NCBI RefSeq assembly: GCF_019711355.1
Contig: NZ_CP081297.1
Span: 1,364,001 to 1,428,000, forward strand
From: Qipengyuania psychrotolerans
Lineage (GTDB): Bacteria > Pseudomonadota > Alphaproteobacteria > Sphingomonadales > Sphingomonadaceae
Direction of reading: 5' to 3'
Length of the DNA: 64,000 nucleotides
Shown: positions 42,673 to 62,836 of the stretch, piece by piece
Numbering within the stretch: the stretch's first letter is position 1
Layout: each line of letters opens with the position of its first letter
Notes under the pieces: generated by a model
The model's database searches: none
What the model was told of the DNA's origin: nothing
Seen by the model: only the letters and a program-made list of their open reading frames with translations
Made by a program: the position numbers and the translations under genes

Positions 42673-43062
42673 ATGAACCATTCCACTTCCGCCCAGATAC
42701 TTCTTGCTGAAGATGATGAAGCGATGCGCGTGTACCTTGAGCGCGCTCTGCTCAAGGCCGGCTACAGCGTCGATTCAGTCGACCGCGGCACCGCTGCGAT
42801 CCCCTATCTGGAGGACGGCGATTATGACCTGCTCCTGTCGGATATCGTCATGCCTGAAATGGATGGCATCGAATTGGCCCAGCGCTGCAACGAAATCAGT
42901 CCGCATACGAAAGTGATGTTCATCACCGGTTTCGCCGCCGTTACCCTCAAGGCGAGCCGCGAACAGCCGCACGCCAAAGTCCTTTCCAAGCCATTCCACC
43001 TGCGCGATCTCGTGATGGAAGTTGAGCGCGTTCTGGAAGACAAGATCAGCGCGCAGATTTAA
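42673..43062 (+). CDS. cpdR: CpdR-type response regulator
   Basis: CpdR is a single-domain receiver that, when unphosphorylated, primes ClpXP to degrade cell-cycle proteins in Caulobacter and relatives. The 129-residue protein has the acidic pocket Asp14/Asp15, phosphoacceptor Asp57 in LLLSDIVMPEMDGIE, Thr85 in MFITGFAAVTL and Lys106 in VLSKPFHLRDLV. These segments match CpdR very closely. AGGAG lies six bases before the ATG. The likely kinase route is CckA-ChpT, encoded elsewhere. A tRNA-Val gene follows. Confidence 0.93.
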   Translation: MNHSTSAQILLAEDDEAMRVYLERALLKAGYSVDSVDRGTAAIPYLEDGDYDLLLSDIVMPEMDGIELAQRCNEISPHTKVMFITGFAAVTLKASREQPHAKVLSKPFHLRDLVMEVERVLEDKISAQI

Positions 43063-43215: not shown

Positions 43216-43445
43216 TCGAAGCAGTCATGAAACTTCCCGCAGGGATCCTGGCGGAATGACTGAATGCGTTGCGCCAATCCCACGCATTGGCACAATAATC
43301 ACGCGAATGATTGTGAAGATGTTCTTTCCTGCTAATGCGTGTTTGTGCAAACGGGCTCGTAGCGGGATCATGCTATTTCCGGCTTCCGCCAACTACAATG
43401 CGCAGATGCATGGGCGTCTGCCAAATTCCGGGTAAATTTCATCCG

Positions 43446-46932: not shown

Positions 46933-49072
46933 ATCCGTAGCCATATCCGTATTCTGAACCATAACCGTAATCGAGATTGCGATCGTCTGCCTTCGTCACG
47001 ACTGCACCGACAACATTACTGCCAGTTCCTCGCAGGCGGCTGATCGCCCCAACAATCTGGCGCAATCCAGCACGGTTAGCCTCGATGACAAAAGCAACAC
47101 CTTCAACTTGCGCGCCTAGAACAGGCGAATCCGCGATACCTAGGACCGGAGGCGCGTCGATCACGACGTGGTCGAAATCCTGCAGCAGGCTTTCCAGCAA
47201 CTGCGCCACTCGAGGGCCAGAAATCAATTCGCCCGGATTTGGCGGCATCGGTCCGGTTGTCAGGACGGATAGGCCTGGCTGGAACTCATTATGGACCAGC
47301 GATCGGATATCGTCCGAACCTGTGAGGAAGTTAACTGCGCCAAAATCATTTGCGATTTCAAGTCTCTTGCCGACCGACGGGTTGCGAAGATCAAGATCGA
47401 CCAAGACTGTCTTGCGGCCATTGCGTGCCATTCGGCTTGCGATGGCGTAAGATGTAGCGGTCTTCCCTTCGCTGGGAACCGTGCTTGAGGTCATCAGCGT
47501 GCGCGGGAATCCATGTGAAGTGGACATGTCCAACATAATGCCGACCGACAGATATGCCTCGGACATTGCGGACTTCGGATCGGTAAGCTCCTCGTAAAGA
47601 TCGACATCTTCGATCCTCGGAATGACGCCGAGCAAGGACAGGCCAAGCTTGCCCTTTACATCGCTCGGATCCCTTAGGCTGCGATCCATCTCTTCCCTGG
47701 CGAACAGAACCGCACCCGCAATTCCCAAACCAAGCAACAGACCGATAGCCAGATTAAGTGCGAGATTTGGACTGGATGGCTCAATCGGGATCCGAGGAGC
47801 GTCAATGAGTTGGGCATTACTTGCGGCTACGCCGGCGACACCGATCTCTTTGTAACGCTGCAAGAGACTGTTGTAGAGCTCACGATTGGTATCAACTTCC
47901 CGCCTCAGGATGTTGTACTGGACTGTATCCTGCTGTTCTGAATTGAAGGCCGCGCGGTAACTGGCGACCTCCTTTTCCAGACCATTTTCACGATCTATCG
48001 CTTGACGCAGGCTGCGTTGAAGATCTGCCGTACCCGTACCAATTGCCGCTGCGATCTCACGGTCGAGTTCTGCTATCTGACTGTCGAGTGACTGAATTTC
48101 GGGATAACCGGGTTCAAACTGAGCAAGGAGTTTAGCCCGTTCGCCGGAAAGGCGCGCGCGCTCGCTACGAAGGCTTGTCGCGACTTGATTTTGCTGCTGC
48201 TGAGCGCCTGCCCTGAACGCACTTTCGGCCGCCAGGCGGTCAGCACGAGCTTCGACCAACGCCTCGTTCATCGCGGCAAGATCGGAAGCTGCGAGAGTCC
48301 GCTCGGCTCCTTGCACACCCGTCGAGGGCAACGACACGATCCCACTTTGGGAAGCGTAACCTACGAACTGCCGCTCGGAATCTTCTAGCCTCGTGCGAAG
48401 CTCGGCGAGCTGGCTTTCGAGAAACTTTCTAGCATCGCCCGTGGCATCGAACCGGCGTTCTAGATTGGCTGCAATGTATTCGTCGATCCAGGTTGCCACC
48501 ACTGTGCGTGAAAACTCTCGCGATGGGCTCGTGAAACCAACGTCGACAAGACTTGAACCAACAACCGGGTTGATCTGTATATTGTCGAGCAGCAAGTCGG
48601 ACGTGATCTCAATAGAGCGGCGTTGATTTGCTGTGACGATTTCGCCATCCGATGGAATGTCGAACGCAGAAAGAAACTCCTCGTTCGACTGCAAATTCAA
48701 CTTTCGCGCAACGCGCTCTGCCAGATTCTTGGACTCCAGAAGAGCATACTGGGTCCTGTAGAACTCGTCATAAAGCAGGGCGTCGCCGGCTGGCTCGACA
48801 GCTTCGACGTCCGCGACATTGGCCTCGACACGATTAACTTGGATGCGCGCAACCGAAGTAAATTGCGGCGTTGCGAGCAGGGTCAACACAAGCGCAACAG
48901 CCATTGTCAGGCCGATTATCACGGCGACAATAAGCCGGTTATTCCAGATTATCCGCCAAAGGCGCGTAAAAATCGACGGTTCGAACGCCTCGTCATAGGC
49001 GGCGTACGGCTCATCGCCGTTACGTACCATCGGCACCAAACCGTTCTCAGGCAATTCCATCTGGGTATTCAC
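46907..49072 (-). CDS. Wzc-like polysaccharide co-polymerase / tyrosine autokinase
   Basis: This 721-residue inner-membrane protein controls chain length and export. The Wzz domain has helix 1 at about 47-68, a long periplasmic coiled coil (about 210-410) and helix 2 at about 438-457 after PRIPIEPSSPN. The cytoplasmic BY-kinase has Walker A SSTVPSEGKTAT (Lys537), Walker A' VLVDLDLRNP and Walker B VVIDAPP (636-642). The tail carries six tyrosines (702, 704, 708, 710, 712, 714) for autophosphorylation. No phosphatase gene is adjacent. A Wza-like gene lies upstream. Confidence 0.93.
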   Translation of the reverse strand: MNTQMELPENGLVPMVRNGDEPYAAYDEAFEPSIFTRLWRIIWNNRLIVAVIIGLTMAVALVLTLLATPQFTSVARIQVNRVEANVADVEAVEPAGDALLYDEFYRTQYALLESKNLAERVARKLNLQSNEEFLSAFDIPSDGEIVTANQRRSIEITSDLLLDNIQINPVVGSSLVDVGFTSPSREFSRTVVATWIDEYIAANLERRFDATGDARKFLESQLAELRTRLEDSERQFVGYASQSGIVSLPSTGVQGAERTLAASDLAAMNEALVEARADRLAAESAFRAGAQQQQNQVATSLRSERARLSGERAKLLAQFEPGYPEIQSLDSQIAELDREIAAAIGTGTADLQRSLRQAIDRENGLEKEVASYRAAFNSEQQDTVQYNILRREVDTNRELYNSLLQRYKEIGVAGVAASNAQLIDAPRIPIEPSSPNLALNLAIGLLLGLGIAGAVLFAREEMDRSLRDPSDVKGKLGLSLLGVIPRIEDVDLYEELTDPKSAMSEAYLSVGIMLDMSTSHGFPRTLMTSSTVPSEGKTATSYAIASRMARNGRKTVLVDLDLRNPSVGKRLEIANDFGAVNFLTGSDDIRSLVHNEFQPGLSVLTTGPMPPNPGELISGPRVAQLLESLLQDFDHVVIDAPPVLGIADSPVLGAQVEGVAFVIEANRAGLRQIVGAISRLRGTGSNVVGAVVTKADDRNLDYGYGSEYGYGYGYGQSSSGD

Positions 49073-49107: not shown

Positions 49108-49815
49108 TCAAAGCTGGCGGGAAAGTATAATGAGCGGCGTGGTAAGCAAGTTGGTGATACCCTGAAAAGTATCGAGCGTGCGGCGACTGCGAGATTCGTC
49201 CACGACTATTGTGTCACCAGGATAAACTATGGGGTCGGCATAATTGCCGTATCGGATGGCCTGCAAATCATAAAGTCCGATATACTCCTGGCCATCGACT
49301 TGTCGCTGTAAGATAATAATCGAGATCTTGGCGAGATCGTCCTCACCACCAGCGGTCGCAATCGCCTGCGACAAGGTGGTCTCGCTACGGAGCGGATAGA
49401 GGCCAGGTTGTCTCACCTGCCCTTCCAAAGTCACAACATTGCTGTTGCCTTCGACCAAATTCACCAGTGCCTGAGGGTCACGAACGTAACGGGCGCGCAG
49501 ACGCTCTTCGATGACGCCCGCGAGTTCAGTCGGTGTCAAACCGGCGGCGGATACAGCACCGGCGATCGGAATGGATACAAAGCCCTGCCCGTCGACGGTG
49601 ATATCACGCCGCATGTCGGGAAGACCAACGATCTCAACAGATATTTTGTCCATCGGGCCGAGTGCATAGACATAGCCCTCGCCGCCATTGACAGGCGCAG
49701 GCATCGCATCGGCCTGCACGTATGCTACATTGGGAGCCTGCCCTAGCTCGGGTGGACCCCCTCCGCATGCAGCCGTCGCCAATACGAGCGCGGCGAGACA
49801 AAACTTACGTATCAT
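49108..49815 (-). CDS. Polysaccharide export lipoprotein (Wza-like)
   Basis: The 235-residue outer-membrane polysaccharide export protein has a lipoprotein signal with Cys17 (LATAACGG). It then has the Poly_export domain (YALGPMDKISVEIVGLPDM; DGQGFVSIPIAGAV) and a SLBB-type domain (VTLEGQVRQPGLYPL; TLSQAIATAGG). It is shorter than E. coli Wza, lacking much of the barrel-lining part, as in many alphaproteobacterial exporters. It would form the outer-membrane pore working with the Wzc-like protein encoded 35 bases downstream. Confidence 0.93.
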   Translation of the reverse strand: MIRKFCLAALVLATAACGGGPPELGQAPNVAYVQADAMPAPVNGGEGYVYALGPMDKISVEIVGLPDMRRDITVDGQGFVSIPIAGAVSAAGLTPTELAGVIEERLRARYVRDPQALVNLVEGNSNVVTLEGQVRQPGLYPLRSETTLSQAIATAGGEDDLAKISIIILQRQVDGQEYIGLYDLQAIRYGNYADPIVYPGDTIVVDESRSRRTLDTFQGITNLLTTPLIILSRQL

Positions 49816-49858: not shown

Positions 49859-51361
49859 TCATTGCTTTCTTTGCCTAGTGCTTTCCGATGGCTGCCGCAT
49901 CATGTCACGGCCGCCGCGGACGCTAGAGATACCGAGGTGAGCGGTCAAGATCACAAAGACGACGGATATGATTGGCGCGCGTAAAGGGTAGTCAATCAAG
50001 CTCGCTGCGAACCACACACCAATCGCCGATGCCAGGTATATAGCCAGATCGCGATGGGGCCGCTTACCACTCATCCATAGCGCGAGGATCTTCCAAACGA
50101 GCCACACCGATCCCCATGCGGCCAGTATCAGCGCTGGTATTCCGCCTTCTATTATCAGCTGCAGAGGATCCAAGTGCGCCTGATTGAGATATCCCGGGCC
50201 AAGTGTTTCGGTAGACTCATACATATGAAACGTCGCAGCAAAGGCTCCGAATCCAGTACCTAATACAAAGAAATCACCGGTCATTTCCCAGAGTAGAGGG
50301 AGAAAAATCCAACGCATCTCATCGGCAGGATCAGAAGCGAACAACCGCGAAAGAGCCGCCTGCCTATCTGACAACGCGAGCACACTGAAAATGCCTGCCA
50401 ACACAATGATCAGTGCAGCCAGAATGAAAGCGACCCTAACCCGCTTCATGTTCACCTTCTTGGCTGCGGACAATTGGTAAACTTTCGAGCGGGAAAGCAA
50501 CCAGAGACTGATCATCAAGGCAGGGAAGCTCATGAGCAGGCCAGCGCGCGAGCCACTCAGGAGAATCAATGGGAAGATAACAAACAAGGTTGCGAGAACT
50601 GCGGCCCCATGAGCCTTTGCCTTGCGCGAAGCAGGGTCAATGAGGGTTGCGAACCACGCGACCGTCATCAGGAGCCACACCAGCAATACTGCTTGGTGAT
50701 TTTTGTTAGAAAACAGGCCTACAGGATGGTGATCATGAGTGATGGCGTAAAAGTGCAGCGCCTTGATCCCAATCGCTTGCAAATATCCCACAGCTGCACT
50801 CGCAAGAGCTAGCGCAACAAGGGCAAGTAGCGACATTCGGACGTAGCGGCCTGATTGAATACAGAAGAGTACTAACGCAGCCAGCGGTACCAACAACGCA
50901 AAAAGCGTGTTCCATGTGCGTGCGGGGTCGAGGCTAAGCGGCCTTGAGACACCGGCCATACCCAAAAGAGTATCAATCTCAGCAATGGCCGATCTCTTGG
51001 GTAATTCTGTCCATACCGACCAAGGTAGCGGGATGAGCTGACAGATCGCGATTGCCATCAAGCCGAGTATTACAGCCAGCGGCACCTTGGCGCCCTTGAC
51101 GTCGCCATTGCGCATGAACCAAAGTCCGTAAAACAAAGCGAAAACTGCTACTGGCCGCAGGATTACTAACGATTGGATATCCGGCCTCGATCCGCCGCCA
51201 GTCAGAGCAACGATACTGAGAAATGCGCAAAACGCTACGAAGCGGCCACGATCAGACCCCAATGCTTCGCCAACCCGCACAAGAAGCGCGCTAGCGGGCT
51301 GCTTTCGAGACCCCTGTTTTGATCTTCTAGCCGACGATGGGCCACGGTGAAGCTGTCGCAT
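49859..51361 (-). CDS. O-antigen ligase / Wzy-type polymerase family membrane protein
   Basis: The 500-residue protein has about 11 membrane helices and the large loop typical of the Wzy_C/O-antigen ligase family. The conserved segment is HHPVGLFSNKNHQAVLL, followed by ILLSGSRAG and LGTGFGAF...YLNQAHLDPLQLIIEGG. It probably polymerises repeat units on the periplasmic face. AGGAG lies four bases before the ATG at 51361, which settles the start over 51403. It is first in the minus-strand group of polymerase, Wza, Wzc and anchored protein. Confidence 0.88.
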   Translation of the reverse strand: MRQLHRGPSSARRSKQGSRKQPASALLVRVGEALGSDRGRFVAFCAFLSIVALTGGGSRPDIQSLVILRPVAVFALFYGLWFMRNGDVKGAKVPLAVILGLMAIAICQLIPLPWSVWTELPKRSAIAEIDTLLGMAGVSRPLSLDPARTWNTLFALLVPLAALVLFCIQSGRYVRMSLLALVALALASAAVGYLQAIGIKALHFYAITHDHHPVGLFSNKNHQAVLLVWLLMTVAWFATLIDPASRKAKAHGAAVLATLFVIFPLILLSGSRAGLLMSFPALMISLWLLSRSKVYQLSAAKKVNMKRVRVAFILAALIIVLAGIFSVLALSDRQAALSRLFASDPADEMRWIFLPLLWEMTGDFFVLGTGFGAFAATFHMYESTETLGPGYLNQAHLDPLQLIIEGGIPALILAAWGSVWLVWKILALWMSGKRPHRDLAIYLASAIGVWFAASLIDYPLRAPIISVVFVILTAHLGISSVRGGRDMMRQPSESTRQRKQ

Positions 51362-51625
51362 GGTACTCCTGGACACTGGGAAAGCTGAACCATGCGCTAA
51401 CAAGCGGAAGGCTCACAATAGTTTTGCGAATGCCATACCCGATCATCAACATCCACTTGTCAGGGCACCGCAGCCCCTATAATCCGCTGATAGATCAAAG
51501 CGTGAAGCGATTAGACCTCGGGCATGTTCGCTCGCCGCCAGCATTTAGCAAAAAAACCTCTCGGCGCAACGAGGGTCATTCGCTGCGACCAGAAACAAAC
51601 TTTCAACAGGAAATTTCCTAGTTCA

Positions 51626-53146
51626 ATGATGCAGACACGTGGGGGCAATTATCAGCGCCCAAATCAAATGAGCCGTAATTCGGGGCCTGCAGTCGTTTCC
51701 GCCAGTCGAGGCCTGACTCGAGGCGGTGCCGTTGCTGACCAGCGCGCTGCGCGCTGGTTTCGGATGGCGCTCATAATATTCATCTGCGCGTTGCCGCTCG
51801 GCTTTATTCCTCTTCAATCAATTGGATTGGCATTTTTAAAGCCGACACAACTTGCCGTCGTCCTCATACTCGCGTTCATTCCTACCATCTTGCGCAGTGA
51901 AGCAGTCGCAAGAAGCGTCACGATGTTCGTGTTTTTGGGAGTTGTGGTGCGACTTTCGGTCCTCCTGATTTCCCTCGCTTGGTCGGACTACGTAATCGAC
52001 GGCCTCACGTTGATCGTTGTCGATTTCGTGAGTGCTTTGGCTACGTTGCTGATCTGCGCCATGGCTTCAAGGTTTTCTCTCTCTGACCTAGCGGGTATCT
52101 TTGCCTGGGGGTCTCTCGGATTGGCCATATCCCTGCACTTCGTGATTTTTGTCGGTCATGCGGCAACAGGTAATTTCAGCCTCTCAATCGCGCTCGATGC
52201 TTTGTTGAGCGGACAAATCAGACAGTTGAAATCGCTCTATTTCGTAGGTGCCTTGCACGGCCTTGGACTTCAGGGGGTCGCAAGCTTCTTCTCTGAAGTT
52301 GCGCCGAAGTCGACGAACGCTTTCGGAAGTTCAATCCTGACACCGACACTGGCAGCAATACACCTCCTCGCTGCGGACCGGATCATGACTAAAACCCGCG
52401 ACGCTGCTCGCGACTGGGCCGTACGAATTGCCATGCTGAATGCTGTCTTCTGCATACTGATGGCGTATAGTGACCGGGTTACCGTTTTTGCGGGTCTGAT
52501 CCTGCTGACACACATCTTCTATTTCGGTTTCGTAGAGGGAAATCGCAAAACCCGCTTTCTGATGATCTACGCATTCACCATGGGCTTTGGTGCGCTTCTC
52601 ATTTATCTCGGTTGGAGTATCGCAGCCCAAGACGGGATTGGTGAATTTGTAGCAAAATTCCTGGACAATCCTCGTTTCAATGACCTGAGCAGAATATTGA
52701 TGGTCCTGGACGATGGTGGCCTGTTCGGATCGGGATTGGGCACCAACCTTAATTTACCCGGCCTTGGCTATAAATATGCTCACAACCTATTTTTGGCAGA
52801 CTACTTTTCTGCCGGCCTCTTAGGTCTTGCCGCCGCAGTGTTCTGGTTTTTTGTCCTTGCAAAATTCGCATTGGCAGGGCTGTTCAGACTGCTTGAACCG
52901 AACGCTTCTGCGGCGGAACGCAGATTGATGATCGGCGGTATTACCATCGTGCTCTATAGTATCGCGCTCACGCAGCTGTCGGCGCAGGGCCTATTCGATC
53001 TCAACGATTGGATCGGACTTGGAATCGGGTTGATCCTAATCATCAAAGCCCGCCAAATGGCTTTCTACCGACAGCGCCCCAATCCGGCCGAGATAAAGCT
53101 CTCCCGTAAACTGCAACGCAGACCGCGTCGCCGATTGAGCGTTTGA
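51626..53146 (+). CDS. Second polymerase/ligase-like polytopic membrane protein
   Basis: The 506-residue protein has a basic, disordered N-terminus of about 45 residues and then about 10-11 hydrophobic helices (FRMALIIFICALPLGFIPLQSIG onward in pieces). A loop contains GLFGSGLGTNLNLPGLGYKYAHNLFLADYFSAGLLG, a pattern seen in O-antigen polymerases where GxGxG precedes a His-Asn pair. The C-terminus is very basic. It runs opposite to the neighbouring polymerase gene, with 264 bases between. The start at 51626 is uncertain (51524 is in frame). It could be a ligase, a polymerase or a different acyl/sugar transferase. Confidence 0.72.
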   Translation: MMQTRGGNYQRPNQMSRNSGPAVVSASRGLTRGGAVADQRAARWFRMALIIFICALPLGFIPLQSIGLAFLKPTQLAVVLILAFIPTILRSEAVARSVTMFVFLGVVVRLSVLLISLAWSDYVIDGLTLIVVDFVSALATLLICAMASRFSLSDLAGIFAWGSLGLAISLHFVIFVGHAATGNFSLSIALDALLSGQIRQLKSLYFVGALHGLGLQGVASFFSEVAPKSTNAFGSSILTPTLAAIHLLAADRIMTKTRDAARDWAVRIAMLNAVFCILMAYSDRVTVFAGLILLTHIFYFGFVEGNRKTRFLMIYAFTMGFGALLIYLGWSIAAQDGIGEFVAKFLDNPRFNDLSRILMVLDDGGLFGSGLGTNLNLPGLGYKYAHNLFLADYFSAGLLGLAAAVFWFFVLAKFALAGLFRLLEPNASAAERRLMIGGITIVLYSIALTQLSAQGLFDLNDWIGLGIGLILIIKARQMAFYRQRPNPAEIKLSRKLQRRPRRRLSV

Positions 53147-53416: not shown

Positions 53417-55216
53417 GTGACGATAAATCTGCAGTGGCGCCACATGGCATCAAGTTACGAACCGCAAATGCCGCTCGTTGTCGGTTGGGGAAGCAGTAAG
53501 AGCGTTGGAGTATTACCGATCGACCGCAGAAATCTCATCAAAGGCAGTCTGGCCTTTGGCCTTCTTTCGGGAACGGTGCTCGGCACCACGAAGACTTTGT
53601 CGCACTTGAACAGCGACGGAGATATTACTGCTGAGCTTCGCAATAGCGGACCCGGCGAAGTCATCCGTATTAAACGCGGCGTATGGACGGTCAGCGAACC
53701 CATCAAGGTCGCAGCCAAGGTCATCTTTGAAGGCGGCGTCATAGTACCTGCTACCGGATCCGTGGTCGAGTTCGAGCAAGATATCCAGACTACTTCGCCC
53801 GGCCCCTTGTTCAACCTCCGGAACGTTCAATGGTCGAAAGGCTTGCCTCGAAGCTCAGCGCGGAAGCGAGGCAGTTTCCTGTGGCAAACTTACGGCGGTA
53901 TCCGCCTGCCAGGCATCGCCAAGGCAAGTTGGTTCGGTGCTCTTGAGCAACCTGGTCACGATAACACACTAGCGCTTCAGGCCATGCTGGATAGCGAAGC
54001 TAAAATCGCGGTTCTTGATGGATTTTTCGAACACACGGCAAATTGGGTAGCTAGCGGCCAGACACTCCGAGGAGATGCCGACTTAGGCCAGGGAGCTCGC
54101 GTCGGCCTCAAGACGATGATCCATGGCGAAAGCTTTGCCGATCTACTAGCGAATAGTGCGCCTCGCTCTCCGGCGGAGCAGGCCTTCCGCGGGCTTTCTA
54201 CACGTTCAGGCGCGGAAGATATCGTCTTTTCCGATTTTGAATATGACGGTTCTGCCAGAGAGCATTTCGATCACCGCGACGGATATCGTAATTATCTCTC
54301 CGACACCGGCGGCAAGGCCGCCGGAAAGAAGTCGTTCCGCCGTCACTTGTTGCGGCAGGGCGGCATAAACATTGGTGAGATGGAGGAAGACGAAGGCTAC
54401 CGTGCGCCGAGCAGCACGCTAATTGAAAGGATGCACATCCACAACACGGTCCGCAGCGGAATCGTGGCCAATCGCGCTCCCAAGGTAACCATTCGTGATT
54501 GCCGAATTGCCGACAGCGATACGGACCACCTAATCTACGCAGATCGCAACCCGGATATACTCGTACAAAACACGCATCTATCGGGTTACGCACATGATGC
54601 GATGGTGGTGATATCCTGCGGAATGATCCGCGATTGCCGAGTTACCGATCTCGCTCCTAATCCAATCGACGGACTTGATACACAGTCGGTGCTATGGCTG
54701 AGGAGCGATCTGGATCAACCAACCTTGATCGAACGCCTCGAAATCACGGGTGATCTCTCTACCCTTTACAAGGGGAACAATCCTTCTCAGATCGTCCATG
54801 TAACCGGAGAACGCTCAGCTTATTTTGGAGATATTTCGGTCACTCACCAAGGCCCTCGCTTCGCGAATACGACCGTGTTTGGGGCCAAGTTCGCATCGTC
54901 GAGAATTGTGATTGAAAGGCTGACAGCTTCGGCAATGCCGGAAGGCGCAATGTTGTGGAAGAGCGATAAGAAGGTTTCGGATCTCTCCATTCGCGACATC
55001 ACATGGAGTTTCGATGACGAGATCGCCGATGCCGCAGCCCTCATGCAGTTTGGTACTTTGAGCAATGCCAACTTCGACAATTTCAGACTCATCAACGGTA
55101 AGGTCGACGCGCTCGTTGAAGTGAGGCGCAAGGCCAGGGGCGTGAATTTCCAGGATATCGAGGGATCCGATAGGATTAATGTTCTTCTAACTGAAGAAGT
55201 CGGTTTTCTCAGCTAG
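53417..55216 (+). CDS. Right-handed beta-helix protein with twin-arginine motif
   Basis: The 599-residue protein has DRRNLIKGSLAFGLLSG near the N-terminus (Arg37-Arg38), a twin-arginine export signal followed by a hydrophobic core. The rest has the repeated short strands of a parallel beta-helix (RAPKVTIRDCRIADSDTDH; NPDILVQNTHLSGYAHD; GMIRDCRVTDLAPN), as in pectate-lyase-like and epimerase folds. Catalytic residues cannot be assigned. Folded export through Tat suggests a lyase, hydrolase or epimerase acting on the locus polysaccharide. The start may be 53417 (GTG), 53444 or 53468. 270 gene-free bases precede it. Confidence 0.75.
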   Translation: MTINLQWRHMASSYEPQMPLVVGWGSSKSVGVLPIDRRNLIKGSLAFGLLSGTVLGTTKTLSHLNSDGDITAELRNSGPGEVIRIKRGVWTVSEPIKVAAKVIFEGGVIVPATGSVVEFEQDIQTTSPGPLFNLRNVQWSKGLPRSSARKRGSFLWQTYGGIRLPGIAKASWFGALEQPGHDNTLALQAMLDSEAKIAVLDGFFEHTANWVASGQTLRGDADLGQGARVGLKTMIHGESFADLLANSAPRSPAEQAFRGLSTRSGAEDIVFSDFEYDGSAREHFDHRDGYRNYLSDTGGKAAGKKSFRRHLLRQGGINIGEMEEDEGYRAPSSTLIERMHIHNTVRSGIVANRAPKVTIRDCRIADSDTDHLIYADRNPDILVQNTHLSGYAHDAMVVISCGMIRDCRVTDLAPNPIDGLDTQSVLWLRSDLDQPTLIERLEITGDLSTLYKGNNPSQIVHVTGERSAYFGDISVTHQGPRFANTTVFGAKFASSRIVIERLTASAMPEGAMLWKSDKKVSDLSIRDITWSFDDEIADAAALMQFGTLSNANFDNFRLINGKVDALVEVRRKARGVNFQDIEGSDRINVLLTEEVGFLS

Positions 55217-55247: not shown

Positions 55248-56360
55248 TCACTTCGGAAGCATCAATGCCTGAATGACAGTCTGCACGTGGGACGACCAAG
55301 TCAGCTTCGCGTCGGAAAAACGCTTCGCTGCCAAGCCAATACGAATTGGTTTGTCGGGATCGTCGAGGAGCTTTTCGATTAGGTCTGCAAGGCCATCGAT
55401 ATCTCGCCCATCGACAAGATAACCGGTTTCACCGTCTACGATGAAGTCGAGTGGCCCACCGTTGTTTCCTGCAATCGGGACACACGCGAATTGCATCGCA
55501 TCTGCAATGGTGATGCCGAATCCCTCGATATCTGCGCCATTGTCGGCAATCACCTGAGGGTGAAGGAACAGCGCAGAACGGCTGTACTCCTCGACCATTC
55601 GCGCTTCACTAGTGAAGCCGAGCATTTCGACATGCTGGCCGAGGCCATGCTCCTCGATGGATTGCCTAATCCCATCCGCCTCCGGTCCGGTCCCAGCGAT
55701 CCGATATCGAAAGTGCTTTCCCCGGTCACGAACCAAAGCCAAAGCCTCGATGCACGCGACGATATTCTTCCGTTCGACCAGCCGGCACACAGTGAAAATT
55801 GCCGAGGTTTCTCGTTCCGGCAAAATCTTGGGATGATCAAACTTTGTGGTGCCGTTCCACGCGACAACTGTTCGTTCAGCCAGTCCGGGATAGGCCGCAT
55901 CGAATTTTTGACGAATTGCTTCGCTTACAAAAATCAATCGATCGGCTTTTGACAGAACCTGACGCGCAAGCTTTTCCATGGGTTTGGAAATTGTGAAAAC
56001 TTCTTTTCCATGGACGGTAATCGCCAGAGGGGTCCTTGGCCAAACCAAGCGGGTCAGCCCCCCTACCCTCCAGCTCGTCGCGTGGATCATATCTGGGCTG
56101 TATCCGGCAAGGCGCAATCGCAACAATCCGGCCAGCATCTTTACCGCAACGCTTGCCTGTGAGCGCTGCTTGACGGAGAGGAACCAATCGAACGCGCTAG
56201 TCTCAGTCAAAGCCTCATCGATATGCGAGGCCAAGACTCTCACGACTTTGCCGGACTCGGCGTAGGCTGAGGCAACTTCGTAAGAATATGTTTCGATCCC
56301 TCCGATATCCGGGGGGAAGCCTTTGGCAATTACGAGAACGTTTTCTGGTTGGGTTGACAT
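55248..56360 (-). CDS. Glycosyltransferase family 4 protein
   Basis: The 370-residue GT-B enzyme has the N-terminal VLVIAKGFPPDIGGIETYSYEVA motif in pieces and a nucleotide-sugar domain with AIFTVCRLVERKNI, RIAGTGPEADGI and DIEGFGITIADAMQFACVPIAG, the GT4 donor-binding loop. It probably adds one sugar of the repeat unit on the cytoplasmic face. The start at 56360 (MSTQPENV) leaves a 41-base gap to the sulfotransferase upstream; starts up to 56477 are in frame but would overlap it. The donor sugar is unknown; GDP-mannose is possible. Confidence 0.9.
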   Translation of the reverse strand: MSTQPENVLVIAKGFPPDIGGIETYSYEVASAYAESGKVVRVLASHIDEALTETSAFDWFLSVKQRSQASVAVKMLAGLLRLRLAGYSPDMIHATSWRVGGLTRLVWPRTPLAITVHGKEVFTISKPMEKLARQVLSKADRLIFVSEAIRQKFDAAYPGLAERTVVAWNGTTKFDHPKILPERETSAIFTVCRLVERKNIVACIEALALVRDRGKHFRYRIAGTGPEADGIRQSIEEHGLGQHVEMLGFTSEARMVEEYSRSALFLHPQVIADNGADIEGFGITIADAMQFACVPIAGNNGGPLDFIVDGETGYLVDGRDIDGLADLIEKLLDDPDKPIRIGLAAKRFSDAKLTWSSHVQTVIQALMLPK

Positions 56361-56401
56361 GGATCTTGGACTGGCTTTCGAGCGTAACCGAGTGGGGTGC
56401 T

Positions 56402-57340
56402 TCAAGATTTGATGTAAGTGCGACGGGCCAAAGCGCCGGGCCAAGCGAACAGCCATGCCGAAGCGCGATAATACCAAGGTGCCTTGCGGCGCCCCTTTGT
56501 CCGCGGATTAAAGGCCATCTTGCCTTCGTGCTTGAACTCATTCCCTCCAATCAGATGGTCGATTTCGAAGGCCTCTCCGGCAGCGATCCGATCGGTCACT
56601 GAGGACATATCCATGGAGAGAAAATCTCCGATCCGTTCGAGTTCGGCACGCGGGTTTGCGGAGAGATTGTCATGCGAAACATGTAATACCCGTTTCGGGA
56701 ACGCGCTGGCGATCCTGACCGCTGCCAGCATTCCCACTGACCATCCTGCCGCGAGCAGCATCATGAAGGGAAAAGTCATGAGCCCGGGACGATAGAGTCG
56801 CTTCATGAACTTTATAGGGCTGCCCGTGCCAAGCCTGTAATAGTGGGAGGTGATGGTGATGTCAGGCTCACGATAGATATGAATGACTTTCGCAGCCGGG
56901 TCAGACTTTAACATCATCAGTCCGCGCGTGTATTCCTTGTGGCTATCGACAAAAGCTTCAACTCCGAAGACCTTGCCAATAGCGGCGCTGAGCGAGCGCG
57001 TTGCAGAGGCATAGAACGCCCACCGATCATCAACGTTCTCTGGTTTGCTTGACAGCGCTGACCTGAACTCACGTATGTCAGTCATTTCGTAAAGGACGGG
57101 GATGTCATCGTCCAGACTGCGGCCGGTATCCCGTTGGTATTGGTCGAATACCTTTGACCATTTGACACACTCGCGAATTGGCTCTCCGCAGGAGCACTTC
57201 TCTTCTGGCCCCCGTGCAAACGCATCGAGGATCTCCCCGCATCCCTCGATGCCGGGATGACCATGCAAGAGAACGGTCAAGATTGTAGATCCCGAATGGG
57301 CCCGTCCGATCACGTAGATGGGCATCACACCATCAGCCAT
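56402..57340 (-). CDS. Sulfotransferase family protein (1)
   Basis: The 312-residue protein has the PAPS 5'-phosphosulfate loop YVIGRAHSGSTILTVLL (GRAHSGST 12-19) and a Cys-rich EKCSCGEPIRECVKW segment. IHIYREPDITITSHYY looks like the 3'-phosphate-binding motif. A hydrophobic stretch (FPFMMLLAAGWSVGMLAAV) may be a membrane contact. It would transfer sulfate from PAPS to a sugar hydroxyl. AGGAGGGG precedes the ATG at 57340, which decides the start; the gene overlaps the second sulfotransferase gene by eight bases. Confidence 0.85.
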   Translation of the reverse strand: MADGVMPIYVIGRAHSGSTILTVLLHGHPGIEGCGEILDAFARGPEEKCSCGEPIRECVKWSKVFDQYQRDTGRSLDDDIPVLYEMTDIREFRSALSSKPENVDDRWAFYASATRSLSAAIGKVFGVEAFVDSHKEYTRGLMMLKSDPAAKVIHIYREPDITITSHYYRLGTGSPIKFMKRLYRPGLMTFPFMMLLAAGWSVGMLAAVRIASAFPKRVLHVSHDNLSANPRAELERIGDFLSMDMSSVTDRIAAGEAFEIDHLIGGNEFKHEGKMAFNPRTKGRRKAPWYYRASAWLFAWPGALARRTYIKS

Positions 57341-58319
57341 GCGCCCCTCCTGAATATTTGGCAGCAAGCGGGGACCAGTCCGAAATATCGAATGGGACCA
57401 TGCTTTGGAGCTTGCGACAATCTTCTAAGAAATAGGCGTTGAGCCTGTCGCGCATTTCCTCACTCAATCTTTCGGGCCGGTCTGCAAATCTATCAACAAA
57501 TTGTGTCACGCTCCTGCTTACGCTTCGGCGAAGTCCCGGTGAAAGCAGGGGCTTGACCATGGACTTAACCAGGCTGGGCCGATTGAAACCATTGCGGATC
57601 GCGCCCAGGGTTTTGTTTTTGTGTTGCACAGTCACATTCTCGCGATCGCCGGATTGCACTTCGGCGGCTGGAATTTCCAGAAATTGGCAGATACGGTCGA
57701 AAACGGCCTGACTGTCAGCGCGAAAATCCTCGAACTTTAGCAGGAGAATTCGTTCATCGCCGAATGCATCAAGATACCGCTGCAAGTGCTGAGAATAAAG
57801 GCCGGTATAAAGGTACCGCCAACCGTATACCCAGTCGTCGCGGCCCCCTGACAATTCCTCATCGACCGCCTCTTCGAAGGTTAAAGCACGTTCGTTCCCG
57901 CGCGAGGAATTATAGCCCCAAGCGGAGTAGGCACGAGCGACCGGGTCACGCAATGCGATGATGATGCGCGCATTCGGCACCGTTTCGCGAATTCGCCGCG
58001 CCGCGTTGGGCGATGGAAAATAGGGTGTAGAGGCGTCTCCCCTGTGCGTGGCCAATTGCGCCGCACGGGATGCAAACATCGCCGCATAGGCCTGCTCCGT
58101 AAAAACGCCCATGTCGACCTGCGAGAGATCCTGGATTGTGCCATCAGGTCCAGGGCGTTTCATGGTTTGCCAACGCTCTTGGTCATCGAAGCCGCGAATG
58201 AAATAGCCCGGCTCCTTGGGAGTGGACATGAAAACATTCGGATGCTTGGCCAGCATCGCGTGCAAGCTGGTAGTCCCCGCCTTCTGCGCGCCCGCGATGA
58301 AAAATGTAGGGGCTGTCAT
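57333..58319 (-). CDS. Sulfotransferase domain protein (2)
   Basis: This 328-residue sulfotransferase is the most canonical of the three. It has the 5'-phosphosulfate loop FIAGAQKAGTTSLHAML (10-19), the 3'-phosphate motif RDPVARAYSAWGYN (124-132) and KEPGYFIRGFDD, a layout like heparan-type and other bacterial carbohydrate sulfotransferases. It is cytoplasmic and needs PAPS. Its ATG overlaps the flippase stop by ATGA, so sulfation genes and the flippase are translationally coupled. The acceptor is unknown. Confidence 0.9.
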   Translation of the reverse strand: MTAPTFFIAGAQKAGTTSLHAMLAKHPNVFMSTPKEPGYFIRGFDDQERWQTMKRPGPDGTIQDLSQVDMGVFTEQAYAAMFASRAAQLATHRGDASTPYFPSPNAARRIRETVPNARIIIALRDPVARAYSAWGYNSSRGNERALTFEEAVDEELSGGRDDWVYGWRYLYTGLYSQHLQRYLDAFGDERILLLKFEDFRADSQAVFDRICQFLEIPAAEVQSGDRENVTVQHKNKTLGAIRNGFNRPSLVKSMVKPLLSPGLRRSVSRSVTQFVDRFADRPERLSEEMRDRLNAYFLEDCRKLQSMVPFDISDWSPLAAKYSGGAHG

Positions 58320-59659
58320 AACGCTCGTTCCTTAAGCGGGAGAAGGTAGGCCGCGACCGAGGGGTCGATGCCAAGATTCCTTCTGGCCCAGAACACGACC
58401 CAGATATTCCAGCTCGCCTTCAATATGAGGAGCCCGAAGGCAGCCCCCAGACCGCCATAAAGGTAACTCAACAAAATGAGACTGGCGAAGCCCATCGGAT
58501 TGGCAATGAGGAGGATGCGCAGGAATTCGCGATCATGTCCTGTCATGTTCATGAGTTGACCGCTCGATCCGCACATCGCGGCGATCAAGAAACCGCACAT
58601 TACGACCAGTTGGGTCGTCGCTGAGCTTGCGAATTCTTGGTTCAACAGTCCCAGCAGGAGCTCTCCAAAGAAGGCAAGCACAGCGATGCCGGCAAGAGCC
58701 GCCGCCGTTGACCATAAGGCCGTAAAGCTTGCAACGCTTTGAAGACGGTCGCGGTCATTGGCCGCATAAGCACGGGCCAGCAAAGGAGAGGTCAGGAGGT
58801 TAAGTCCCTGCAGAGGGAACGCAATCACAGCCGCTATCCTGACAACAGCGAAAAAGGCGCCGGTTTCAGCAGGACTCACAAAAAGCCCTACGACTACAAC
58901 GCTGAACGGGAGAATGCCTGAATTCATCGCAGAGACCGCCCAAAGCCTCATCGAACTGGCGCGCCAGCCAGCTTTGCTCTGACTTATCGTTTCTTCGTCG
59001 CCGCTGGCAGGTTCCTCAAATTTCGCGAAATTCGTCAATTCGGCCCGCCAACGCGGCCGGGTCAAAAAAAGGAATTGAATAAATGTTAGAAAGGCCAGCG
59101 ACAACGCCAAGACCCAGATCGCCGCATTTGCATCCACCAAGATCGAGATTCCTCCACCGATCAAGGCGAGAATACCAAGGGCGATGGGACGCCAGACGAT
59201 TTCGCGCGGAACCAACGAACCGACCAGACTTCCCAGTCCTCGTAAGATGTGGGCCTGAAAATCGGCGGCCAGCATTCCGATGGATAGTAGCGCTACCGCA
59301 GTTGCCGACGCGTTCATGTCGCTCACGGCATTAAAGGCGAAAATTATTAGTACGGCGAGGAGCGCGCCCATGGCCGTCTTGGCCATACTATAGCGAAGCA
59401 CGGCGCGCATGAGGTCTGGCCTATCTCGCTCACGATAAGCGGCCAGCGATCGCAAAATCAAGCGCTGCTGACCCAGGTCGGTCACAAGAGAAACCGTTGT
59501 CGCAACGCTGAACGCAAAGCCGAAGTGGCCAAACTGGGTCGTCGTCATCCATTTCGACATGACGAAAATTAGCCCAAAGCCCAAAGCTGCGGACAGAAAT
59601 CGGATCAAGATCGCGACGCTACCCCAGCGCATGAGCTTGCTGATGCGCATAGTGCCCAT
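58316..59659 (-). CDS. Polysaccharide flippase (Wzx/MATE-like)
   Basis: The 447-residue protein has about 12 hydrophobic helices arranged as in the oligosaccharide-flippase families (FGHFGFAFSVATTVSLVTDLG; QRLILRSLAAYRERD). It would flip lipid-linked repeat units to the periplasm for polymerisation. The start at 59659 (ATG) shares one base with the upstream stop (TGATG); a TTG at 59662 is also in frame. The ATGA overlap at its 3' end joins it to a sulfotransferase gene. This implies sulfation before or together with flipping. Confidence 0.88.
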   Translation of the reverse strand: MGTMRISKLMRWGSVAILIRFLSAALGFGLIFVMSKWMTTTQFGHFGFAFSVATTVSLVTDLGQQRLILRSLAAYRERDRPDLMRAVLRYSMAKTAMGALLAVLIIFAFNAVSDMNASATAVALLSIGMLAADFQAHILRGLGSLVGSLVPREIVWRPIALGILALIGGGISILVDANAAIWVLALSLAFLTFIQFLFLTRPRWRAELTNFAKFEEPASGDEETISQSKAGWRASSMRLWAVSAMNSGILPFSVVVVGLFVSPAETGAFFAVVRIAAVIAFPLQGLNLLTSPLLARAYAANDRDRLQSVASFTALWSTAAALAGIAVLAFFGELLLGLLNQEFASSATTQLVVMCGFLIAAMCGSSGQLMNMTGHDREFLRILLIANPMGFASLILLSYLYGGLGAAFGLLILKASWNIWVVFWARRNLGIDPSVAAYLLPLKERAL

Positions 59660-60570
59660 CAAGCAGCCTCGTTCGGAAAAAACCGCGCCATCTCATCGGC
59701 GCTAAAACCGACTGACCGCGCGCCTTCAGCCCATTTCTCCGAATCCGGCCGAAGCCCCCTCGAAGCGGGTTTAAGCCAAGAACTATCAATTGATACGCGG
59801 GCGATTCCAGCGAGATCCTGAATCTGCGAAATGTTTACCGCAGGCTCGCTGCAAAGCTCTTCAAATGACAGTGACATAAATTGATCGCCGTAACATTCTC
59901 GTCCCTCGCTCTCCGCCAGGCGAAATGCGCCGAGCCATATCGCGAGGAGACGATGGAAAGCAGGGACATTGCTCGCCAACTTTGGCAAACTCACTCCGGC
60001 TTCGGATAAGAGTGAAGCGGTAGCGTCGAAGTGAAGGCCACGCGTGAGTTCTTCCATTCCCCAGCCATTAAACCGGCGCTTGCGCTGTAGCGCAGTCCTG
60101 CGGTTCCAGCTTTTACGCAGCCCGAATGGGTCGAAACTATCTGAAGGTTGGAGGTGTGAACTCGCAAAGGCGACGGGATGCCTGAAGAGATGGACAAGCA
60201 CTGCATCGGAGGCGGCCTCATGGAGCGCCCGGATCTTGCCCATGCATCTCGTCACATCAAACGCGACCGGTCCGCTGTCGAGCAGATACTGAAGGTACTG
60301 AACTTGCCCTTCGGAAAACTCGCGGGTGACTTCTTCCCCTCGGCTGATCGGTGCATAAAGATCGCGAAAACGCTGGGGGTCGCGATTGTACAGCGCAATG
60401 AATTCGGCGCGGGTCCGCTTCTGATTTTCGGCGGGCAAGTCATGGAGCAGCCTGCTGAAGGGTTCATCATAGCAGGTGTATCGTCGATCCTGACGGAGCA
60501 GGTTCCACAGTGCTGTCGTGCCTGAGCGACGCAGGGCAACAACCGCAATATGTTTGGGAGAGGCCACCAT
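59659..60570 (-). CDS. Sulfotransferase family protein (3)
   Basis: The 303-residue protein has the phosphosulfate-loop motif VVALRRSGTTALWNLLRQ (14-21) and the 3'-phosphate-type motif HLFRHPVAFASSHL (130-138). It is only distantly like the other two sulfotransferases here, so it is not a recent duplicate. A helical C-terminal domain with FMSLSFEELCSEP is common in this family. The gene stop overlaps the flippase start. It lies eight bases downstream of the GT2 gene. Confidence 0.85.
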   Translation of the reverse strand: MVASPKHIAVVALRRSGTTALWNLLRQDRRYTCYDEPFSRLLHDLPAENQKRTRAEFIALYNRDPQRFRDLYAPISRGEEVTREFSEGQVQYLQYLLDSGPVAFDVTRCMGKIRALHEAASDAVLVHLFRHPVAFASSHLQPSDSFDPFGLRKSWNRRTALQRKRRFNGWGMEELTRGLHFDATASLLSEAGVSLPKLASNVPAFHRLLAIWLGAFRLAESEGRECYGDQFMSLSFEELCSEPAVNISQIQDLAGIARVSIDSSWLKPASRGLRPDSEKWAEGARSVGFSADEMARFFPNEAA

Positions 60571-60578
60571 GCTTTCTA

Positions 60579-61406
60579 CTAACGGCTACGCAGCCATTGC
60601 ATCACTCGCCGGGCATTTACGAAACCAGCATTGAAAAACCATCCACCCATGAGCTGCAGCGACTTAGCGAGCGGAAGCTGTTCCTGCGTACGGTAAACGT
60701 TCCACTGAAACGGGATCACCTTGAACTTGTTGGACGACACCGTACCGCTGTGAATACGGTAGCTGCTGGTGACTTCGTCAAGCAACCGGGCTTCGCCTAA
60801 AACTTTGAGCAAGCGCAAGAAAAAAACGAAATCCTGACGCTTCCTGATGAGCGGAAAATAAACGGGCTTTGGAAGGGCGCCGAGATCAACCATCAAGCTT
60901 GAAGTTCGGATGATGCAATGCCGCAGAAGTTCCTCGTAAGTGACGCTCGCGGCTAACGGACCGCTCGAGCCAATCTTGCTACCCTCACTGTCGATCAGAT
61001 CGTACCTTGTGTAGCACATTTTCGCTCCGCTCGATTGCATGAACCGAAGCTGCTTTTCGATCTTATCTGGATACCAGCGGTCATCGGAATCCAAGAGGGC
61101 AAGGAATTCGCCAGAAACGGCATCAATACCCTTGTTCCGGGCGTTGCCTGCGCCCGCATTCGTGTCTAGCGGAATAATCTTTAACCGCGGATCATCGATT
61201 TTATCGAGCAGGTCTAGGGTGTCGTCGCTCGACGCATCGTCAACTGCGAGAATTTCGAGGTTCTCGTGCGACTGATTGAGAACGGAATTCACCGTCTCAA
61301 GAATATGCGAACGCGAATTATGCATCGGGATAACGACCGACACCAATGGTGCCGAAGCACGACTCAATGTACGACCGGGGCTGTCTGCCGGCATATGGGC
61401 GACCAT
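60579..61406 (-). CDS. Glycosyltransferase family 2 protein
   Basis: The 275-residue GT-A enzyme has PLVSVVIPMHNSRSHILETV near the N-terminus, LEILAVDDASSDDTLDLL and the metal-binding DSDD at 106-109 in FLALLDSDDRWYPDK. It probably adds a sugar to the growing lipid-linked unit. It is the first gene of the minus-strand group GT2-sulfotransferase-flippase-sulfotransferase-sulfotransferase-GT4, with gaps or overlaps of no more than 41 bases. The start could be 61406 or 61394. The 209 bases to icd hold promoters for both directions. Confidence 0.9.
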   Translation of the reverse strand: MVAHMPADSPGRTLSRASAPLVSVVIPMHNSRSHILETVNSVLNQSHENLEILAVDDASSDDTLDLLDKIDDPRLKIIPLDTNAGAGNARNKGIDAVSGEFLALLDSDDRWYPDKIEKQLRFMQSSGAKMCYTRYDLIDSEGSKIGSSGPLAASVTYEELLRHCIIRTSSLMVDLGALPKPVYFPLIRKRQDFVFFLRLLKVLGEARLLDEVTSSYRIHSGTVSSNKFKVIPFQWNVYRTQEQLPLAKSLQLMGGWFFNAGFVNARRVMQWLRSR

Positions 61407-61615: not shown

Positions 61616-62836
61616 ATGGCCAAGATCAAGGTAGCCAACCCGGTCGTCGAACTAGACGGCGATGAAATGACGAAGATCATCTGGAAGTGGATCCGCGAGC
61701 AGCTGATCCTTCCTTATCTGGATGTTGACCTGAAATACTACGACCTCTCGATCGAGAAACGCGACGAGACGGACGATCAGATCACGGTCGATGCCGCTAA
61801 TGCGATCAAGGAACACGGTGTTGGCGTCAAATGCGCCACTATCACTCCTGATGAAGCCCGCGTTGAGGAATTCGGCCTCAAGAAGATGTGGCGCTCGCCC
61901 AACGGCACCATCCGCAACATCCTTGGCGGCGTGGTTTTCCGCGAGCCCATCGTGATCGACAACGTTCCGCGCCTAGTGCCCGGCTGGACTGACCCGATCG
62001 TGGTTGGCCGTCACGCATTCGGTGACCAGTATCGCGCCACTGACACCCTGATCCCCGGCGCCGGCAAGCTGCGCCTTGTGTTCGAAGGTGCCGACGGGAA
62101 GAACATCGATCTCGATGTGTTCGAGTTCGAAAGCCCGGGCGTCGCCATGGCGATGTATAATCTCGACGACAGCATCCGCGATTTTGCCCGCGCCAGTTTC
62201 CAGTACGGTCTGGACCGCAAATGGCCGGTCTACCTGTCGACCAAGAACACCATCCTCAAGAAGTACGATGGCCGCTTCAAGGATCTGTTCCAGGAAGTGT
62301 TCGAAGCTGAATATCAGGCGGACTTCGACAAGCACGGCATCACTTACGAACACCGTCTGATCGATGACATGGTCGCGGCAGCGCTCAAATGGAGCGGCAA
62401 GTTCGTCTGGGCCTGCAAGAACTACGATGGCGACGTTCAGTCGGACATCGTGGCACAGGGCTTCGGCTCGCTCGGCCTCATGACCTCCGTGCTGATGACG
62501 CCCGACGGCAAGACCGTCGAAGCAGAAGCGGCGCACGGCACCGTCACTCGCCATTATCGCCAGCATCAGCAGGGCAAGGCCACTTCGACCAACCCTATCG
62601 CCAGCATTTTCGCCTGGACGCGCGGTCTTATGTATCGCGGCAAGTTCGACAACACCCCAGACGTGGTCAAATTTGCCGAAACGCTGGAAGCTGTCTGCAT
62701 CAAGACGGTTGAAAGCGGCAAGATGACCAAGGACCTCGCACTGCTTATCGGCCCCCAGCAGAGCTGGATGACGACCGAGCAGTTCTTCGCAGCGATCGTC
62801 GAAGGTCTCGAGCAGGAAATGGCCAACTGGGGCTGA
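61616..62836 (+). CDS. icd: NADP-dependent isocitrate dehydrogenase
   Basis: Icd oxidises isocitrate to 2-oxoglutarate in the TCA cycle. The 406-residue protein is of the type II (eukaryote-like, homodimeric) NADP class: [19 protein letters not shown] at the start, [24 protein letters not shown] for isocitrate binding, and [32 protein letters not shown] in two pieces near the end. AGGA lies five bases before the ATG. It stands alone between the polysaccharide locus and a strong terminator. Confidence 0.96.

What the first reader, a model, noticed from the sequence alone, without database searches (positions are those of the whole stretch)
55248..61406. Three different sulfotransferases in a glycan assembly operon: a sulfated polysaccharide
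Six minus-strand genes (GT2, sulfotransferase, flippase, two sulfotransferases, GT4) are joined by overlaps of 1-8 bases or short gaps. The three sulfotransferases have PAPS-loop motifs but differ from one another, so they probably act at different positions or sugars. Sulfated bacterial exopolysaccharides are known but few pathways are defined. With the initiating transferase, Wzc, Wza and polymerase nearby, the window may hold a nearly complete set.
Basis: partly seen in the sequence, partly recalled or inferred. Interest (0 to 1): 0.75.

Follow-up and report, generated by a model that had tools for sequence, protein, structure and literature searches.

The report
Sulfated exopolysaccharide locus with three sulfotransferases
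A bacterium related to Qipengyuania carries a compact, exchangeable set of genes that most likely builds a slime or capsule sugar chain and decorates it with sulfate using three dissimilar enzymes, a set-up of which few bacterial examples are described.

Summary
Six minus-strand genes (55248-61406) encode GT2, ST1, a Wzx-type flippase, ST2, ST3 and GT4. The three ST proteins exceed Pfam's Sulfotransfer_3 cut-off, keep their PAPS-site residues and are mutually dissimilar; models of ST1 and ST3 match solved sulfotransferases. ST1-Wzx-ST2-ST3 recurs in the same order in Qipengyuania citrea H150, at the same site beside icd, and in a MAG titled Rhodobacteraceae, so it behaves as an inherited, transferable unit. 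The interval from a response-regulator gene to icd (42.7-61.6 kb) is a Wzx/Wzy exopolysaccharide locus whose content differs widely among 20 genus mates examined; I found one or two sulfotransferases over the cut-off in 7 of them, three in none. PAPS can be made: cysNC lies about 380 kb away. Best explanation: the lipid-linked repeat unit is sulfated in the cytoplasm by up to three sulfotransferases, flipped by Wzx, polymerised and exported. No sulfate has been measured; sugars and positions are unknown. Sulfated bacterial polysaccharides with sulfotransferase-bearing clusters are already described (synechan, Cobetia, Vibrio), so this is a new variant of a known kind.

The parts
60579..61406 (-). 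GT2 glycosyltransferase (275 aa; nearest named model TuaG, below its cut-off)
   Evidence: PF00535 118.5 bits; NCBIfam TuaG 197.6 bits vs cut-off 400; 72% identical in Q. citrea
59659..60570 (-). ST1, sulfotransferase of a rare subfamily (303 aa)
58316..59662 (-). Wzx-type flippase, about 10 hydrophobic segments
   Evidence: MatE 28.4 bits (cut-off 24.9), Polysacc_synt 24.6 (cut-off 28.2); hydropathy; between ST1 and ST2 in L015 and L016 too
57333..58319 (-). ST2, sulfotransferase nearest in sequence to 3rnl and to heparan-sulfate NST/3-OST (328 aa)
   Evidence: PF13469 80.5 bits; PDB 3rnl E 4e-37, NDST 8e-12, 3-OST-3 7e-11; K13-T17, E36, R124, S132
56402..57340 (-). ST3, sulfotransferase (312 aa from ATG 57340; 321 aa if TTG 57367)
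55248..56477 (-). GT4 glycosyltransferase (start uncertain)
   Evidence: PF00534 114 bits; 36% identical counterpart at the other end of the Q. citrea locus
53417..55216 (+). Right-handed beta-helix protein with a Tat-like N-terminus (my reading), possible tailoring enzyme or lyase
   Evidence: PF13229 25.6 bits, just under the 25.9 cut-off; 49% identical in Q. citrea; no PDB sequence match at E <= 1
51524..53146 (+). 540-aa protein with about 10 hydrophobic segments, no family match; no hit in the Q. citrea locus
49859..51403 (-). Wzy-type polymerase
   Evidence: PF04932 55.1 bits; 45% identical in Q. citrea
49108..49815 (-). Wza-type outer-membrane export protein
   Evidence: Poly_export 70.7 bits, SLBB; 62% identical in Q. 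citrea
46907..49072 (-). Wzc-type co-polymerase with kinase domain
   Evidence: Wzz, GNVR, AAA_31; TIGR01007 123 bits vs cut-off 108; 66% in Q. citrea
45682..46962 (-). 426-aa protein of unknown family, conserved beside Wzc
   Evidence: no Pfam match at E <= 0.01; 34% identical in Q. citrea
43335..44888 (+). Initiating polyprenyl glycosylphosphotransferase
   Evidence: PF02397 210 bits; TIGR03025 296.2 bits vs cut-off 295.55
42673..43062 (+). Response regulator gene, fixed border of the variable interval
   Evidence: PF00072; 81-89% identical in the 9 of 20 genus-mate stretches that reach it; 85% in Q. citrea
61616..62836 (+). icd (isocitrate dehydrogenase, by my reading of its sequence), fixed border of the variable interval
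   Evidence: translation, no family search; 91-97% identical in the 20 genus mates fetched; 88% in Q. citrea

Best explanation
The interval 42.7-61.6 kb is a Wzx/Wzy-type exopolysaccharide (or capsule) locus whose present allele makes a sulfated polymer. The initiating transferase loads the first sugar phosphate on undecaprenyl phosphate, and GT2 and GT4 extend it (a trisaccharide if no transferase from elsewhere takes part). ST1, ST2 and ST3, read as cytoplasmic enzymes that use PAPS from the housekeeping CysNC enzyme, sulfate the lipid-linked unit at up to three places. Wzx, encoded between the STs, flips the sulfated unit; Wzy polymerises it; Wzc and Wza export it. Shown: gene content, intact cofactor motifs, modelled sulfotransferase fold (ST1, ST3), conserved linkage, PAPS-synthesis gene. 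Inferred: that the acceptor is the repeat unit, timing before flipping, number and position of sulfates, surface location.
For: Three Sulfotransfer_3 proteins over cut-off in one operon with GTs and a flippase. Conserved PAPS-site residues. Confident models of ST1 and ST3 whose 50 listed solved-structure matches each are sulfotransferases by title, except four Teg12/Teg14 rows for ST1, which I recall as glycopeptide sulfotransferases. ST1-Wzx-ST2-ST3 conserved in order in L015 and L016, with GT2, beta-helix protein, Wzy, Wza, Wzc, 426-aa protein and a GT4 also in the Q. citrea locus. Identities of the four genes fall together (65/59/59/73% to Q. citrea; 56/50/55/67% to the MAG). Equal longest-contig lengths among database hits: 5 shared by ST1 and ST3, 5 by ST1 and Wzx, one of these the window's own. 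Surroundings of 6 of 6 distant ST3 relatives hold GT, Wzy, Wzx or Wzc genes. An ST is next to a Polysacc_synt flippase gene in 5 of 7 ST-bearing genus-mate loci, one of the five flippases under the family's cut-off. CysNC present. A hydropathy scan shows no membrane-like segment in ST1 or ST2; the one in ST3 lies in a long helix of the modelled fold. No signal-peptide predictor was run.
Against: No sulfate measurement. No PAPS genes found in the locus, whereas the Vibrio paper calls their co-location a hallmark (passage). ST acceptors cannot be read from sequence; the best structural matches of ST1 and ST3 are polyketide-pathway and tyrosyl-protein sulfotransferases, with heparan-sulfate enzymes lower, and Foldseek TM-scores for ST1 are low. 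Glutamate 36 of ST3, a candidate base, is present in only 11 of 22 rows (my count). In the MAG the glycosyltransferase surroundings differ, so the acceptor need not be the same. Wzx is under the Polysacc_synt cut-off. Glycosyltransferases elsewhere in the genome were not surveyed.
Confidence: 0.8

Rival explanations
1. The three STs act on something other than this polysaccharide, such as carotenoids (sulfated xanthophylls are known in Erythrobacter), lipids or a protein-linked glycan, and only share the operon.
For: Sulfated carotenoids are reported for Erythrobacter flavus, with conversion in extracts that suggests sulfotransferase (passages). The best structural matches of ST1 and ST3 are not carbohydrate enzymes.
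Against: ST1, ST2 and ST3 stay linked to a flippase in three genomes, and distant ST3 relatives sit near polysaccharide genes in 6 of 6 fetched places. Six other ST places exist in this genome that could serve small molecules.
Confidence: 0.07
2. The polymer is sulfated, but by fewer than three of the enzymes: one or two STs are silent, redundant or act on another glycan.
For: In synechan, deleting xssE did not substantially alter bloom formation or EPS accumulation (passage; sulfate content of that mutant was not in the passages I saw). GT number and ST number need not match.
Against: Cofactor motifs are conserved in 31 ST1 rows, 22 ST3 rows and 8 ST2-type proteins; the three are kept together at 55-73% identity in two other genomes.
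Confidence: 0.25
3. The product is a sulfated LPS O-antigen rather than an exopolysaccharide or capsule; the 540-aa multi-spanning protein would then be a ligase.
For: The 540-aa protein has about 10 hydrophobic segments and lies beside a Wzy.
Against: Wza and Wzc in the same locus are export components of EPS/capsule systems (recalled); the 540-aa gene gave no hit in the Q. citrea locus.
Confidence: 0.1

Closest known systems
Synechan xss cluster of Synechocystis PCC 6803 (PMC8205485, passages seen)
   Same: Wzx/Wzy-type EPS cluster carrying sulfotransferases of distinct subfamilies; product shown to contain sulfate.
   Different: Cyanobacterium, megaplasmid, 8 GTs and 2 STs with about 2 sulfates per 8 sugars; here 3 GTs and 3 STs in the locus, ST genes on both sides of wzx, chromosomal locus of variable content. 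XssA/XssE sequences were not compared here.
Vibrio sp. KMM 8419 sulfated capsule cluster (PMC11641403, passages seen)
   Same: Marine proteobacterium, three ST genes in a capsule/O-antigen cluster, one near wzx; sulfated polymer established by NMR.
   Different: ABC-transporter capsule, about 80 genes with STs in three separate regions, PAPS genes inside the cluster; here a compact Wzx/Wzy locus without PAPS genes.
Cobetia marina KMM 1449 sulfated capsule cluster (PMC11766843, passages seen)
   Same: Sulfated polysaccharide with ST genes in its cluster.
   Different: ABC-dependent, PAPS operon inside the cluster, disaccharide repeat.
Heparan-sulfate N- and 3-O-sulfotransferases / PDB 3rnl (for ST2)
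   Same: Sequence similarity across the cofactor site and flanking motifs.
   Different: The heparan-sulfate enzymes are eukaryotic Golgi enzymes (recalled); ST2's acceptor is unknown and the heparan-sulfate matches cover about 120 residues.

Membership tests
PAPS-dependent sulfotransferase (Pfam Sulfotransfer_3) | Profile match over the curated cut-off | tested here: met
   45.5, 80.5, 52.3 bits vs 27 for ST1, ST2, ST3
PAPS-dependent sulfotransferase (Pfam Sulfotransfer_3) | 5'-phosphosulfate loop and 3'-phosphate-binding R...S (spacing 8); the meaning of these motifs is recalled | tested here: met
   ST1 14-19, R130/S138 in 31/31 rows; ST3 16-19, R157/S165 in 22/22 rows; ST2 K13-T17, R124/S132, present in 8/8 by eye
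PAPS-dependent sulfotransferase (Pfam Sulfotransfer_3) | Sulfotransferase fold | tested here: met
PAPS-dependent sulfotransferase (Pfam Sulfotransfer_3) | Transfers sulfate to a glycan | not testable with these tools
   needs an assay
Wzx/Wzy-dependent exopolysaccharide pathway | Initiating glycosylphosphotransferase | tested here: met
   PF02397, TIGR03025 just over cut-off
Wzx/Wzy-dependent exopolysaccharide pathway | Wzx flippase | tested here: met
   MatE over cut-off, Polysacc_synt under cut-off, NCBIfam Wzx-like far under cut-off (23.5 vs 300); about 10 hydrophobic segments
Wzx/Wzy-dependent exopolysaccharide pathway | Wzy polymerase, PCP (Wzc) and OPX (Wza) | tested here: met
   PF04932, Wzz/GNVR/TIGR01007, Poly_export
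Sulfated-polysaccharide biosynthesis cluster | PAPS-synthesis genes inside the cluster (hallmark proposed in PMC11641403) | tested here: not met
   The only APS-kinase match in the genome is about 380 kb from the locus
Sulfated-polysaccharide biosynthesis cluster | Product contains sulfate ester | not testable with these tools
   needs chemistry

The most novel reading that the evidence does not exclude
ST1-Wzx-ST2-ST3 is a transferable sulfation-and-flipping module: the flippase recognises the sulfated lipid-linked unit, so sulfation is a licence for export. The module moves as a block between alphaproteobacterial orders and into different glycosyltransferase settings, giving a densely sulfated, heparin-like bacterial polymer (up to one sulfate per sugar). 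The interval between the response regulator and icd acts as a capsule-like exchange locus in which surface sulfation is gained and lost between related species.
Probability: 0.25. Interest if true: 0.72.

Novelty: new variant of a known kind. Interest (0 to 1): 0.52.

Why it matters
Bacterial sources of sulfated polysaccharides are sought, and few complete genetic pathways turned up in my searches. This locus is small, has equal numbers of glycosyltransferases and sulfotransferases, and has a named relative (Q. citrea H150) in which deletions and chemistry could be done. It makes testable whether sulfation precedes flipping and which enzyme sulfates which position. The varying presence of sulfotransferases at the same site in related species offers natural alleles to compare for surface properties.

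Tried and rejected
Carotenoid sulfation as the role of the STs: considered because of Erythrobacter flavus, set aside on linkage. ST3 as a membrane-anchored enzyme: hydropathy flags one segment (196-214 of the 321-aa form), but the model places it in a long helix of the fold (H186-213 in the 312-aa numbering); ST1 has a similar long helix (H204-230). First BLAST of loci gave nothing because the loci were stored under another file name; repeated. The first ST seed set took the wrong strand for two genome STs and left one out; redone. PDB sequence searches with ST1 and with the beta-helix protein found nothing at E <= 1. GC content is low in the locus (52-57% by gene, window 57.6%), but the drop begins near 36 kb, outside the locus, so it was not used as evidence of transfer. 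Literature searches. One search (sulfotransferase + exopolysaccharide + Wzy + Alphaproteobacteria) returned 0 papers; no gene cluster for a sulfated EPS of Erythrobacter or Qipengyuania appeared among the titles listed, but one search listed only 20 of 430 papers, 20 of 24, and subscription journals are not held. Distribution searches with alignments scored only 5-6 candidates per genome, so their absences are soft; (single protein, 149 genomes) all candidates were scored in the 21 genome rows shown.
Full report
What is there. Pfam places ST1, ST2 and ST3 in Sulfotransfer_3 above the curated cut-off (45.5, 80.5, 52.3 bits against 27). NCBIfam has no model for them at E <= 0.1. The three do not find each other by BLASTP better than E 0.19.

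Is it a unit? A scan of named genomes with ST1 gave two loci: Qipengyuania citrea H150 (L015) and a MAG titled uncultured Rhodobacteraceae (L016). Both hold ST1-flippase-ST2-ST3 in the same order and strand. Identities to the window are 65/59/59/73% and 56/50/55/67%. Q. citrea also has GT2 (72%), the beta-helix protein, Wzy, Wza, Wzc, the 426-aa protein and a GT4 (36%), all between icd and the response regulator, plus a fourth ST-like gene (PF00685, 31.9 bits). The MAG has a second ST3-like gene (41%) and different neighbours: UDP-glucose/GDP-mannose dehydrogenase, a GT4-type transferase, a PfkB/cytidylyltransferase-like fusion, an epimerase, GlcNAc-2-epimerase family and GT9. Among database proteins, ST1 (33 hits), ST3 (22 hits at E <= 1e-10) and Wzx (9 hits at E <= 1e-30, candidates capped at 8000) share longest-contig lengths: 5 for ST1/ST3, 5 for ST1/Wzx including the window's own, 2 for ST3/Wzx. 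Equal lengths suggest the same contigs; apart from L016 (29,414 bases) the contigs themselves were not read. The flippase cluster P0060, 98% identical to the L015 protein, stands for 107 member sequences and carries a Tara source label.

How rare? ST1 was found in 1 of 149 genomes of the family, 1 of 397 with the profile and 1 of 385 of the class, each time only the window's own; these draws overlap. ST3 at E <= 1e-30 was found in 5 of 396 genomes of the order and 3 of 398 of the phylum, own genome included both times. The profile searches scored only 5-6 candidates per genome, so they may miss some. In contrast, Sulfotransfer_3 as a whole is common: 95 of 99 family genomes. The window's genome has 7 places for it and 6 for Sulfotransfer_1, 9 distinct places in all, 3 of them the operon.

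The locus is exchanged. icd was found in 41 of 41 genomes of the genus drawn. I fetched 18.5-18.7 kb beside it from 20 of the 40 others, down the list of best icd matches with four skipped. In these, icd is 91-97% identical, and the response regulator, reached in 9 of 20, 81-89%. Where a counterpart of the initiating transferase, Wzy, Wza or Wzc is found it is only 27-44% identical. In L035 the response regulator sits about 270 bases from icd with no hit of the locus genes between. Candidate STs were sought among ORFs of 180 aa or more with ten seeds and an iterated profile, then checked by Pfam: genes over the cut-off occur in 7 of 20 (L021, L022, L023, L024, L026 with two, L032 with two, L034), three in none. 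L025 and a second gene of L021 fall under the cut-off, and a weak candidate in L027 was not checked. For L032 and L034 the response regulator was not reached, and more genes may lie beyond the fetched stretch in the 11 loci that do not reach it. A Polysacc_synt protein is encoded right next to an ST in 5 of the 7 (L022, L024, L026, L032, and L034 under the cut-off). L022, L024 and L026 look related, so these are not five independent events. The two others (L021, L023) showed no such neighbour in what I scanned.

Distant ST3 relatives. The surroundings of the six other genomes' hits were fetched. Each holds at least one polysaccharide gene, by Pfam or by similarity to the window's proteins: initiating transferase and GT4 (L051), Wzy, Wzx, Wza and Wzc (L052), Wzy (L053), Wzx, Wzy and Wzc (L054), Wzy, Wzc, GT4 and a second ST (L055), GT4 (L056). 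The large membrane protein next to the ST in L051 has no Pfam match, and in L053 and L054 my ORF picking did not list the ST itself, which rests.

Sulfate donor. One APS kinase in the genome, in a CysNC fusion (1056.6 bits, cut-off 715), about 380 kb from the locus. Five proteins of the inositol-phosphatase family, which contains CysQ (recalled), are present; which of them removes PAP was not determined.

How it most likely works. See the best explanation: assembly on undecaprenyl phosphate by three glycosyltransferases, cytoplasmic sulfation from PAPS, flipping by the Wzx encoded between the STs, polymerisation by Wzy, export by Wzc/Wza. The trisaccharide and 'up to three sulfates' follow from counting genes in the locus and may be wrong if other transferases take part. 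Sulfation before flipping is inferred from PAPS being cytoplasmic (recalled) and from the lack of membrane-like segments in ST1 and ST2; no signal-peptide predictor was run.

What is known. Synechan (PMC8205485, passages): Wzx/Wzy, two STs, sulfate shown; the authors write that ST genes had to their knowledge not been found in other bacterial EPS clusters and that no sulfated polysaccharide was reported in other bacteria. Other papers do report such polymers: Vibrio KMM 8419 (PMC11641403, passages; three STs spread over about 80 genes, ABC capsule, PAPS genes inside) and Cobetia KMM 1449 (PMC11766843, passages). Shark Bay metagenomes list alphaproteobacterial orders holding the genes for production (PMC9723792, passages). 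Pontiella (PMC7356697) and Actinoplanes (PMC13390465) were seen in search listings only. So I rate this a new variant: a compact Wzx/Wzy locus, by all signs alphaproteobacterial, with three dissimilar STs in a conserved ST-Wzx block inside an exchange locus.

Noticed in passing
window 42673-61616 and L018-L037: The interval between the response-regulator gene and icd behaves as an exchange locus for exopolysaccharide genes in the genus; L035 has the two borders almost adjacent (empty allele).
   Followed up: partly
L015 16125-17051: Q. citrea carries a fourth sulfotransferase-like gene (PF00685) between its beta-helix and Wzy genes; no counterpart found in the window.
   Followed up: partly
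L016 14228-15157: The Rhodobacteraceae MAG has a diverged second ST3-like gene (41% identical) directly after the first, giving four sulfotransferase genes with the flippase in one run.
   Followed up: partly
window 53417-55216: Beta-helix protein with a Tat-like start, conserved inside the locus; may be a lyase or epimerase acting on the polymer.
   Followed up: partly
window 51524-53146: 540-aa protein with about 10 hydrophobic segments and no family match, opposite strand, no hit in the Q. citrea locus; possible second polymerase or ligase.
   Followed up: no
window 44889-45681: Gap holding a small minus-strand reading frame with signal-peptide-like and hydrophobic stretches (read by eye from the DNA printed).
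   Followed up: no
window 39978-42329: RTX serralysin-type metalloprotease gene next to the border of the locus; genes similar to it also lie near ST3 relatives in L054 and L055.
   Followed up: no
window 36884-38805: Mannose-1-phosphate guanylyltransferase-like and mannose-6-phosphate isomerase-like genes just outside the locus (both under NCBIfam cut-offs); GDP-mannose may be a precursor.
   Followed up: no
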